Below, in pieces: positions 6,942 through 28,222 of a DNA stretch of 64,000 nt. Where the stretch lies: positions 14,145 through 78,144 of the forward strand of contig NZ_NVEC01000017.1 of the NCBI RefSeq assembly GCF_002571225.1, read 5' to 3'. Both the position numbers and the translations under genes were made by a program. The notes below the pieces were generated by a model. The model saw only the letters and a list, made by a program, of their open reading frames with translations, searched no databases and was not told the DNA's origin. Numbering within the stretch: the stretch's first letter is position 1; every line of letters begins with the position of its first letter. The stretch is from Bacillus sp. AFS059628 (GTDB taxonomy: Bacteria; Bacillota; Bacilli; Bacillales; Bacillaceae_G).

Positions 6942-6958
6942 ACGAATTACAAATTAAT

Positions 6959-7763
<805 letters not shown>

Positions 7764-18105: not shown

Positions 18106-18394
18106 AAATTAAATGCAGTGAAGAGAAGAGTAAATAAAATGAATTTTTCACAGAGAGCTCCATTTAGCTGAAAAGGAGTAAAAATTTTTTATTGAACCAA
18201 GCCTCTGAGCAGCACATCCGAACCTTTTATTAGGGGAGGACGTGAGCTCCCGTTATAGAGCTATGGTATAAGCATGATTTACAATGCAGTACCTGATAAG
18301 GTTAATAAGGCGACATATTAACAAACTAGGGTGGCACCGTGATGATAAATCTCGTCCCTAAGACAAAAAGTCTTGGGGGTGGGATTTTTTTATT
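18106..18394 (+). promoter_or_regulatory. T-box leader (tRNA-sensing) with terminator
   Basis: The leader has stem I elements (AGTA at about 18130, CAGAGAGCTC distal loop) and the invariant T-box sequence AGGGTGGCACCGTG at 18328-18341. The terminator pairs the region ATCTCGTCCCTAAGAC with GTCTTGGGGGTGGGAT and ends in a T-run (18347-18394). Uncharged tRNA pairing with the T-box bulge should switch transcription on. The specifier lies in TTGAACCAAGCCTCTGAG (about 18202-18219). CCA (Pro) and CAA (Gln) both fit, with AAC (Asn) less likely; I cannot settle it by eye. The gene it controls is a broken MFS transporter, presumably once an amino-acid transporter. Confidence 0.93.
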
Positions 18395-25308: not shown

Positions 25309-26499
25309 TTAATCTACATATTTAGCACTTACATGACAGTCTCTTGTCGGTATATGTCTAGTAAGAGAAAAGATAGCCAAACCTAAAGATAATAAAACTA
25401 GAGATCCACCAACCCAGGCCATATTGGCGACATCATGTACTTGTTTTAAAGCTATACCTCCAACTGCAGAGCCAAGTGAAATTCCTATTTGTAGGGCTGA
25501 ATTATTAAAACTTTGCTGTATATCTGACGTATCCGGGGTAGTTTGGATTAAATAACTTTGTTGAGGTGGTGCAAGCCCCCAACTCAATGCAGCCCAAACT
25601 ATCATAACAGGAATAAATAGGATAATAGAAACTGCCATAAACGGTAATATAAATAAGATTAGAGCAAATAAAGTAATAACTATCACAATACTTTTTGGAG
25701 CGCCTATTTTATCTGATAAAACACCGCCGAACGCTCCGCCACTTACTGCAGCTATACCAAACACTAAATAAAATATGCTAATCCAATAAGGGTTTAGGTG
25801 GAACTTATCTTCTAAAAAAGGAGTAAAATAAGCATATAGAGTATAGTGTCCCGCTAACATAAACATGGTAGCTAGATGAGCAGCGCCTAGTTTTGGACTA
25901 CACACGGCCTTTAATTGAATAGATAAAGGAATTCGATTTTCCTTTTCCTCTCCAGGTATTTTCTCTAAAAATACTGAAATTAAGATGATAGATCCCAATG
26001 ATAAAATAGCAATACATAAAAAAATAACTCTCCACCCAAATGTGTTCGAAATTAATATGCCTAGTGGTACTCCTAGAACAAGTGAAGAGCTAATACCCAT
26101 ATAAATTAATCCTAATGCTTTTGCTCGGTAAGAGGGATTAACAATCTTTGCTGCAATTGTAAGGGAAAGTACTACAACTAAAGCTGTACTCATAGCGGTT
26201 AAAATTCTTGCTATCATCATAAAAGTAAAGTTCGGACTGAAATACGTAAGTATATTACCGATTAGAAAAATGTAAAGTGAAATAATATACAATTTTTTTC
26301 TTTCCACTTTACTCGTGAAAATTAATAATACAGGCCCTGCTATTGCATAAGTAAAGGCGAAAATTGTAATTAATTGACCAGCGGAACTTAATGAAACATT
26401 AAAATCTTTAGCGATGTCTGGCAATATTCCTCCAACAATAAGCTCTACAAGACCTACTGCTATTGTTGCTAAAGCTAATATAAATACTTTGAAATTCAT
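25309..26499 (-). CDS. pbuE: MFS purine efflux transporter PbuE
   Basis: 396-residue, 12-helix MFS protein of the DHA1 group. Its start [24 protein letters not shown] and several internal stretches ([68 protein letters not shown]) agree with my memory of B. subtilis PbuE, which exports hypoxanthine and purine analogues. A purine riboswitch lies directly upstream, as in B. subtilis, which supports the call. GAAGGG precedes the ATG. It is convergent with the MerR-methyltransferase gene. Confidence 0.9.
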
Positions 26500-26537: not shown

Positions 26538-26640
26538 AAAAAAACTCCTGACTACAAACGCTATAATACGCATTTTGTAGTCAGGAGTTATTGGTTCCTG
26601 GTAGAGACCCCCAAGCCATATTCTTGGAGTTATACATGAT
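26538..26640 (-). promoter_or_regulatory. Purine riboswitch upstream of pbuE (C at the specificity position)
   Basis: Read on the minus strand from 26637: P1 GTATAA, P2 CTCCAAG/CTTGGGG around AATATGG, then GTCTCTACCAGGAACC, P3 and the 3' strand CCTGACTACA. Core residues of the purine aptamer are all present. The base that pairs with the ligand (position 74 in the xpt numbering) is C in GA-C-UAC, where B. subtilis pbuE has U; C predicts guanine or hypoxanthine, not adenine. The aptamer's P3/P1 3' strand (AACTCCTGACTACAAA) is also the left arm of a terminator whose right arm is TTTGTAGTCAGGAGTT plus T-run (26538-26560). Ligand binding should therefore prevent termination: an ON switch. Confidence 0.93.
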
Positions 26641-26668
26641 TCTCATATGTAATTAATCAATGTAATAG

Positions 26669-26697
26669 AAGATACCATATTACTTTTTATATTTCAA
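26669..26697 (-). promoter_or_regulatory. Probable promoter of the pbuE leader
   Basis: Minus-strand TTGAAA (26697-26692) and TATCTT (26674-26669) with a 17-bp spacer, about 30 bases before the aptamer. Confidence 0.45.
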
Positions 26698-26790
26698 TAA
26701 AAAATTAGCATTCGTATATATAATCCTAAGTCTTTTATAGCAATCATTTTATTTCTATCAGTACAGAGAGACGTAAAAACCCACAGTTGA

Positions 26791-26818
26791 TAAAAGATGG
26801 GGTTGGCCCCATCTTTTA
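26791..26818 (+). terminator. Terminator-like hairpin of unassigned role
   Basis: Perfect 12-bp stem TAAAAGATGGGG/CCCCATCTTTTA with a 4-base loop and a following TTTATTT. No gene ends just before it on either strand. It lies upstream of the MFS promoter and may insulate the two divergent units. Confidence 0.6.
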
Positions 26819-26853
26819 TTTATTTCTCCTTAAAACTTTTCAAATTGTACATA

Positions 26854-26917: not shown

Positions 26918-28222
26918 ATGGGAAGTTTACGATTACATATAGAAAATAAAAAAAGCAATCAAGAACTTAGAAACATTTTTTTATATTCAATTGCAAAAAC
27001 AGTATCAATATTCGGTAGCTCTATTTATAGTTTCGCATTAGGATTATATGTTTTACAAATAACTGGGTCCGCATTAAATTTCGCGATTACGCTCATATTA
27101 GGAACGATTCCAATGATTGTTATGAATCCGTTTGCTGGTGTCATTGCTGATAAGGTTGATAAAAAGAAACTAGTTGTTTGTATGGATTTACTCAGTGGAT
27201 GTTTATTAATAGCTATTTATATATTAAGCAGCTATTATGGATTAAACTTATTCTTCATTTATACTACAACCTTTCTTATGACAGTATTTACAACCTTTTT
27301 TGGAATAGGATTAGAAGCTGCAAAACCTAATATCGTCTCTAAAGAGAGGCTTATGAGTATTAATTCTATAAGTAAAATTATCGATTCCATATCTTTAATT
27401 CTAGGCCCTATGCTAGGGGGGATTGTTTTTGTAGTCTTTGATATGAAAACATTTATCATTATAAACGGTATTTCATTTATTCTTTCGGGTATATCCATAT
27501 TATTTATTAACTTTAAATTGTTCGAGCAAAACATAAATGAGGAATATTCTATTAGAGAAATTCATTTTATTAAAGATATAAAAGAGGGATACTCTTACTT
27601 AATGGAGAGGGAAAGTTTAAAGAATACGTTTAATATATTAATTTCCCTTAATTTCTTCTTAGGTTTTTCTGTAACTGTTCCATTGCCATACATTATTAAT
27701 ACAGTTCTCAATCTTAGTTCTAAACAATTTGGTATGATTCAAGGGACTTTTCCGATAGGTATGATAGTTGGTGCAGTATTAGTAAAAAAGATAACTGATC
27801 GTTATTCTTATTCCTATCTATTGAAAAAAATAAGTTTTATGTTGGCGATTTTTATGATAGTTTCAGGTATTCCTGTTTTATTCAAAAGTATTGAAGTAAA
27901 TAATATTATATTTGTTACTATGTATTGCGCTATTATGTTCTTTGTAGGGCTAACGATAGCATTCATTGATATCCCTTTAATTTATTTTATGCAAAAAGAG
28001 ATCCCGGATGAATATAGGGGTAGAGTGCTTAGTATTGGATTAAGTATAGGTAAAATGATGCAGCCGATAGCATTGGTATTATCAGGTCTATTATTAAATC
28101 ATATTCCAGCCTACACGATTCCAATTGGAGGAGGCATTGTATTTCTTATTTTGAATAAAGTTTATTCAAATAAGTTGAATTTAGAAATTCATTCAAAAGG
28201 GTATAGTGTTGAACGTAATTAA
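26918..28222 (+). CDS. MFS efflux transporter (MFS_3 / drug-export type)
   Basis: 434 residues with 12 predicted membrane helices and the MFS loop 2-3 signature GVIADKVDKKKL. A second-half loop has the degenerate form VLVKKITDRYSYSYL. The protein resembles the macrolide/bacteriocin-type MFS_3 exporters. GCGAGGGAAATGTT precedes the ATG. Its promoter has the layout used by MerR-family activators, and a MerR-methyltransferase gene lies 2.9 kb away, so drug- or metabolite-induced expression is plausible. The substrate is unknown. Confidence 0.87.
   Translation: MGSLRLHIENKKSNQELRNIFLYSIAKTVSIFGSSIYSFALGLYVLQITGSALNFAITLILGTIPMIVMNPFAGVIADKVDKKKLVVCMDLLSGCLLIAIYILSSYYGLNLFFIYTTTFLMTVFTTFFGIGLEAAKPNIVSKERLMSINSISKIIDSISLILGPMLGGIVFVVFDMKTFIIINGISFILSGISILFINFKLFEQNINEEYSIREIHFIKDIKEGYSYLMERESLKNTFNILISLNFFLGFSVTVPLPYIINTVLNLSSKQFGMIQGTFPIGMIVGAVLVKKITDRYSYSYLLKKISFMLAIFMIVSGIPVLFKSIEVNNIIFVTMYCAIMFFVGLTIAFIDIPLIYFMQKEIPDEYRGRVLSIGLSIGKMMQPIALVLSGLLLNHIPAYTIPIGGGIVFLILNKVYSNKLNLEIHSKGYSVERN

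What the first reader, a model, noticed from the sequence alone, without database searches (positions are those of the whole stretch)
26538..26640. pbuE riboswitch has ON-switch layout but cytosine at the specificity position
In B. subtilis, pbuE is turned on by adenine through an aptamer with U at position 74. Here the minus-strand aptamer is almost the same in sequence, yet the base before the P1 3' strand is C (GA-C-UAC), which in the purine family pairs with guanine or hypoxanthine. The terminator still competes with the P3/P1 3' strand, so ligand should switch expression on, whereas the well-studied guanine riboswitches are OFF switches. A guanine- or hypoxanthine-induced exporter makes sense, since PbuE exports hypoxanthine.
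Basis: partly seen in the sequence, partly recalled or inferred. Interest (0 to 1): 0.75.

Follow-up and report, generated by a model that had tools for sequence, protein, structure and literature searches.

The report
Purine-exporter switch probably turned on by guanine
An RNA switch in front of a probable purine export pump has the same "turn on when bound" layout as the textbook adenine switch but carries the letter that should make it sense guanine or hypoxanthine, and relatives of this pump have swapped that letter several times in evolution.

Summary
Window 26538-26657 (minus strand) holds a purine riboswitch (RF00167, 70.9 bits, cut-off 37) with C at the specificity position (26580). 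A 16-pair terminator stem swallows the P3 and P1 3' strands, C74 included. It ends 38 nt before a PbuE-like MFS gene. Ligand binding should therefore prevent termination: an ON switch of the pbuE kind with a guanine/hypoxanthine pocket.

C74 is not unique to this window. Among 121 distinct PbuE-like genes with this leader, 98 have U74 and 23 C74 (window included), with at least 7 (collapsed tree) to 11 C/U changes. In the terminator nt74's partner is G in 18 of 23 C74 leaders and A in 94 of 98 U74 leaders. In the same layout 33 of 33 leaders before adenosine, adenine and related deaminases have U74 and 6 of 6 before GMP reductase have C74.

Ligand and direction are predicted, not measured. Guanine-type ON switches were predicted before (guanine-II), with a different pocket. 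I found no report of this pocket/platform pairing in the papers searched; one directly relevant paper was not held.

The parts
26669..26697 (-). Promoter-like site TTGAAA-17-TATCTT with TG before the second hexamer, just upstream of the aptamer
   Evidence: Consensus scan, (1 found, 2.3 expected by chance: weak)
26574..26639 (-). Purine aptamer P1-P2-P3 (RF00167 match runs 26558-26657)
26580..26580 (-). Specificity nucleotide C74 in J3/1 (GA-C-UAC)
26543..26589 (-). Intrinsic terminator hairpin; its 5' arm (26589-26574) is the P3 3' strand + J3/1 + P1 3' strand; C74 pairs with G 26552
26538..26544 (-). Run of seven U closing the terminator
25309..26499 (-). PbuE-like MFS gene, 396 aa
   Evidence: Pfam MFS_1 164.5 bits; 80 relatives at 61-76% identity, 80 of 80 with this leader

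Best explanation
The leader is a transcriptional ON riboswitch. During transcription the purine aptamer folds first. If guanine (or hypoxanthine) is present it pairs with C74, locks P1 and P3, and stops the later strand from invading, so polymerase reads on into the exporter gene. Without ligand the 3' arm takes the P3/P1 3' strands, forms the terminator and transcription stops. The cell thus makes the exporter when guanine/hypoxanthine is in excess. The aptamer belongs to the pbuE lineage, in which the specificity letter has changed between U (adenine) and C (guanine/hypoxanthine) several times. Shown by sequence: aptamer, C74, overlap with the terminator, recurrence, compensation. Inferred: ligand identity, direction of response, kinetic control, exporter substrates.
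For: Aptamer and layout. Pocket letters U22, U47, U51, A73, C74, U75 intact and no junction insertion (alignment; numbering recalled). In energy terms it behaves like the subtilis-type leader L131: aptamer with P1 -14.0 against -13.2 kcal/mol; full-length preference for the terminator 18.1 against 21.0. 80 of 80 PbuE relatives carry the layout, 14 of 80 with C74. 121 distinct PbuE rows: 98 U, 23 C; 11 changes on the quick tree, 7 after collapsing branches under 95% support, where 200 label shuffles gave mean 15.5, minimum 10. The window's nearest rows by path are U74, so its C74 looks like a separate change. Terminator partner of nt74: U-A 94, U-G 4, C-G 18, C-A mismatch 5. Gene match: 33 of 33 U74 before adenosine deaminase (21), a deaminase-like amidohydrolase (11) and adenine deaminase (1); 6 of 6 C74 before GMP reductase. 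In 12 of 12 genomes with a C74 pbuE every RF00167 hit found is C74 (69 placed, plus L101 read by eye), so no adenine riboswitch was found there; the one U74-pbuE genome checked, G010, has one U74 among four. An engineered guanine/hypoxanthine aptamer on the pbuE platform was reported to switch on about 14-fold in E. coli (PMC7707468 passage).
Against: No binding or expression data. The tree is unrooted, many branches are weak and the window sits on a long branch. 5 of 23 C74 leaders keep A opposite C74 in the terminator, as expected of recent changes or of drift. The PbuE/deaminase contrast (Fisher p 0.004) ignores shared descent: the deaminases are close relatives (most 70-96% identical to the reference of their family), so they are about three independent associations, not 33. 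Direct chimeras of guanine-family aptamers with the pbuE platform failed until P3 and P2 features were changed (PMC7707468 passages); the window has A-C where subtilis-type pbuE has an A-A mismatch in P3, effect unknown. In B. thuringiensis nupR a C-to-T change killed the guanine response without giving an adenine response (PMC9430930 passages). Exporter function is by homology only; no NCBIfam model reached its cut-off among the 25 shown.
Confidence: 0.83

Rival explanations
1. Same ON switch, but the physiological ligand is hypoxanthine (or xanthine) rather than guanine.
Against: GMP reductase leaders of the same layout carry C74 (6 of 6), which fits guanine best, though their P3 edge differs from the window's; no junction insertion or U51 change as in xanthine-II.
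Confidence: 0.35
2. C74 is a loss-of-function change; the leader now only terminates or leaks and no longer responds.
For: 5 of 23 C74 leaders have an uncompensated C-A mismatch in the terminator; nt74 swaps can kill a natural switch (PMC9430930 passages).
Against: Window and 17 other C74 leaders have the compensating G; the pocket letters are unchanged; the letter clusters on the tree (7 changes against a shuffled mean of 15.5); none of the 121 leaders parsed has A or G at nt74.
Confidence: 0.08
3. The leader still senses adenine despite C74.
For: Sequence otherwise close to the adenine switch (56 of 68).
Against: Specificity by pairing with nt74 is established for this family (recalled, and PMC11477304 passages); leaders before adenine-type deaminases keep U74, 33 of 33.
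Confidence: 0.04
4. It is an OFF switch like xpt or yxjA, through an undetected antiterminator.
For: Most C74 aptamers in the 13 genomes checked lack the ON layout (58 of 72).
Against: The terminator consumes the aptamer's own P3/P1 3' strand and the fold shows no separate antiterminator; forcing P1 costs 18.1 kcal/mol against the terminator.
Confidence: 0.03

Closest known systems
B. subtilis pbuE (ydhL) adenine riboswitch
   Same: Gene type, aptamer sequence (56 of 68 with L131, a subtilis-type leader by recall), terminator running through P3, ON logic
   Different: C74 in place of U74; ligand should be guanine/hypoxanthine
Guanine-I riboswitches (xpt, yxjA)
   Same: Pocket letters including C74
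   Different: Those are OFF switches; in yxjA the platform does not run through the ligand-binding junction (PMC9756952 passages)
Guanine-II riboswitches of Paenibacillus
   Same: Guanine sensing with predicted ON logic (PMC9295807, section 7)
   Different: Guanine-II has a J2/3 insertion and other junction changes and mostly precedes phosphoribosyltransferases; the window has the ordinary pocket and an exporter-like gene
2'-dG-sensing variant before purine nucleoside hydrolase (PMC9295807 passage)
   Same: Guanine-family aptamer before a terminator stem, predicted ON
   Different: Nucleoside ligand, different gene

Membership tests
Purine riboswitch, RF00167 | Three-way junction aptamer above the gathering score | tested here: met
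   70.9 bits against 37
Guanine-I riboswitch | C74 with U22, U47, U51, A73, U75 unchanged, no junction insertions | tested here: met
   Alignment with OFF-type C74 aptamers, (numbering recalled)
Guanine-I riboswitch | Binds guanine | not testable with these tools
   Needs in-line probing or ITC
Adenine riboswitch | U74 | tested here: not met
   C at 26580
pbuE-type ON expression platform | Terminator 5' arm made of the P3 and P1 3' strands | tested here: met
   16 pairs
pbuE-type ON expression platform | Ligand increases readthrough | not testable with these tools
   Needs transcription assay
Guanine-II / xanthine-II | Insertion in J2/3 (both), J3/1 insertion and U51G (xanthine-II) | tested here: not met
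   No insertion, U51 kept; features from PMC9295807 passages and section 7
PbuE purine exporter | MFS family and homology | tested here: met
   MFS_1; 61-76% identity to the 80 loci and 55-75% to the PbuE-type ORFs; the name PbuE is by homology and recall
PbuE purine exporter | Exports purines | not testable with these tools
   Homology only; no curated exporter model reached its cut-off among the 25 shown

The most novel reading that the evidence does not exclude
The pbuE ON switch is a lineage in which a riboswitch's ligand has been exchanged between adenine and guanine/hypoxanthine at least seven times by one letter while layout, direction and gene stayed the same, with the terminator strand following by compensation; bacteria with the guanine version have no adenine riboswitch left. 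The same architecture with matched specificity serves guanine disposal elsewhere (GMP reductase).
Probability: 0.68. Interest if true: 0.6.

Novelty: new variant of a known kind. Interest (0 to 1): 0.5.

Why it matters
The U74/C74 letter is the textbook specificity determinant of purine riboswitches, probed mostly by engineered swaps. Here nature appears to have made the swap repeatedly in front of one gene, with sister genes as controls. That gives a natural test of how a cell chooses which purine triggers export, and pairs of leaders for asking what else must change when specificity flips.

Tried and rejected
Own-genome inventory of purine riboswitches: no genome held. Placing the species: one plasmid match at 71% and none for window 1-25000; no relative in viral contigs; best 76% in 397 genomes of the order; 64-70% over matches longer than 500 bases in 16 large genomes; the RNA model in 17 genomes of G166's family gave only leaders already held; PDB sequences gave only distant matches. 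GC is 31-33%, which does not decide. Xanthine-II and guanine-II membership rejected. OFF logic rejected on structure. A first leader script found nothing because of a pattern error, corrected. A first script for nt74 misread J3/1 and orientation in some loci and reported U or A where there is C; replaced. Rows dropped: L198, L199, L200 were not parsed, so they are not in the 121 PbuE rows; 14 duplicates were dropped; the L001 row was cut before its terminator and is ignored, and the 'terminator no' flag of L026 and L064 only reflects nt74 lying in the C-A mismatch. The sister loci were found with a model that favours the ON layout, so they cannot give an ON/OFF ratio; L294 (no ORF found) and L284 were not classed. 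The duplex cut-off did not of 23 of them ON (2 NCS2, 3 oxidoreductase-like, 1 amidohydrolase, 2 XDH-like); all 6 GMP reductase leaders passed. Ten paper searches showed no natural guanine ON pbuE in the listings and passages seen; Kirchner & Schneider 2017 (RNA 23:762), on five B. anthracis purine riboswitches, is not held and might include an orthologue.

Full report
What is there. The minus strand from about 26640 to 26538 reads a purine aptamer followed at once by an intrinsic terminator. Rfam's purine model matches over its whole length, 70.9 bits against a cut-off of 37. The junction strands carry the ordinary guanine/adenine pocket, and the letter before the P1 3' strand is C (window 26580). 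A 16-pair duplex joins the P3/P1 3' strands (26589-26574) to 26558-26543, then U to 26538. The free fold is this terminator, -42.4 kcal/mol, z -5.4. A 396-residue MFS gene starts 38 nt later. A weak promoter-like site lies just upstream.

Logic. The terminator can form only by taking the strand that closes the aptamer. With P1 enforced, the full leader is 18.1 kcal/mol less stable than with the terminator; for L131, a subtilis-type leader by recall, the figure is 21.0, and the aptamer-only transcripts with P1 are -14.0 and -13.2. So, as in pbuE, the choice must be made during transcription, and a bound ligand should favour readthrough. This is inference from structure.

Not seen in this window alone. 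A protein search gave 80 PbuE-like loci at 61-76% identity (the best 80 of 125 kept); 80 of 80 have the aptamer and overlapping terminator upstream, 14 with C74. A covariance model run on 397 genomes of the order led to 90 further loci (L111-L200), of which 87 leaders were parsed, 54 of them before PbuE-type genes. After dropping 14 duplicates there are 121 distinct PbuE rows: 98 U, 23 C with the window. The quick protein tree needs 11 changes of letter; collapsing branches under 80% support leaves 10, under 95% leaves 7; 200 shuffles of labels at the last setting gave mean 15.5, minimum 10. So the letter is inherited but has changed repeatedly. The window's nearest rows are U74. Limits: the tree is unrooted, many branches are weak, the window sits on a long branch, and its own species is not held.

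Compensation. Position 74 is also in the terminator stem. Its partner is A in 94 and G in 4 of the 98 U74 leaders; in the 23 C74 leaders it is G in 18 (window included) and A, a mismatch, in 5: L026, L044, L064, L136, L138. The mismatched ones look like recent U-to-C changes. L183 (U opposite G) has C74 genes L080 and L078 as its nearest rows, which suggests a change the other way. Both are inferences.

Specificity follows the gene. The same layout occurs before other genes. Of 33 such leaders parsed, 21 precede adenosine deaminase, 11 an amidohydrolase and 1 adenine deaminase; 33 of 33 have U74. The classes were set by motif and by identity to a member checked with profiles (L161, L163, L164); the amidohydrolase's best NCBIfam match, MTA/SAH deaminase, is below its cut-off. 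Leaders before GMP reductase have C74 in 6 of 6, with a terminator through the P3/P1 3' strand, and all six genes pass the GMP reductase cut-off; their P3 edge differs from the window's (U or A for C54, A for G72). PbuE, a pump for more than one purine (recalled), has both letters. Fisher's test PbuE against deaminases gives p 0.004 but ignores descent: the deaminases are close kin.

Whole-genome view. In 13 genomes holding these loci (12 with C74 pbuE), 74 purine aptamers were found; 73 were placed by script and one, L101, read by eye. All are C74 except the U74 pbuE of G010. So no adenine riboswitch was found in the 12. By the script's test 14 of 72 C74 hits and the one U74 hit have the ON layout.

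Known or new. Guanine riboswitches are mostly described as OFF switches (C. difficile, PMC11477304 passages; yxjA, PMC9756952 passages; nupR of B. thuringiensis, PMC9430930 passages). Barrick & Breaker name certain glycine, adenine and lysine riboswitches as ON types (PMC2258182 passages). Exceptions are predicted: guanine-II riboswitches of Paenibacillus (PMC9295807, sections 5 and 7 read) and a 2'-dG variant before a nucleoside hydrolase (passage). Guanine-II has junction insertions that the window lacks. Engineered pairings of guanine-family aptamers with the pbuE platform exist, one with about 14-fold induction, while direct chimeras failed until modified (PMC7707468 passages). I found no report of a natural C74 pbuE switch in ten paper searches, of which I saw listings and passages, but the library is incomplete and Kirchner & Schneider 2017, on five B. 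anthracis purine riboswitches, is not held.

Verdict. The strongest addition is that the specificity letter has switched repeatedly within one ON architecture, tracks the kind of gene regulated, and is mirrored in the terminator. Interest 0.5; new variant of a known kind.

Noticed in passing
L200, L288, L293, L298, L299, L300: C74 purine aptamers with a terminator through the P3/P1 3' strand before GMP reductase: a predicted guanine-induced guaC.
   Followed up: partly
L199, L289, L295, L305 (NCS2-type permeases; L199 checked with Pfam); L296, L304, L306 (FAD-oxidoreductase-like; no profile match for L283 of this kind): C74 purine aptamers with a changed J2/3-P3 edge (TCTAGA in place of TCTACC) and AACTAC in J3/1; the ligand may be altered.
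   Followed up: no
L285, L292: Purine aptamers with changed J3/1 (TAGCTAC, TATCTAC) before xanthine-dehydrogenase-type genes; they may be xanthine-II/guanine-II-like variants.
   Followed up: no
L102, L252, L255, L259, L260, L263, L265, L269: C74 purine aptamers with U in place of A73 (GTCTA in J3/1); L287, which contains L259, has an ORF that looks like an NCS2 permease (no profile run).
   Followed up: no
L060, L135, L140, L141, L142: C74 pbuE leaders that share A at position 48; A48 is in 5 of 23 C74 and 0 of 98 U74 PbuE leaders.
   Followed up: no
L198: A decayed pbuE-type leader with damaged J2/3 and no PbuE ORF listed behind it in the fetched stretch.
   Followed up: no
window 18109-18362 (+) and 6958-7074 (+): A T-box leader and a SAM riboswitch, both above Rfam cut-offs.
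   Followed up: no
window 26789-26820: A terminator-like hairpin (14 pairs) between the riboswitch promoter and the divergent MFS gene at 26918.
   Followed up: no
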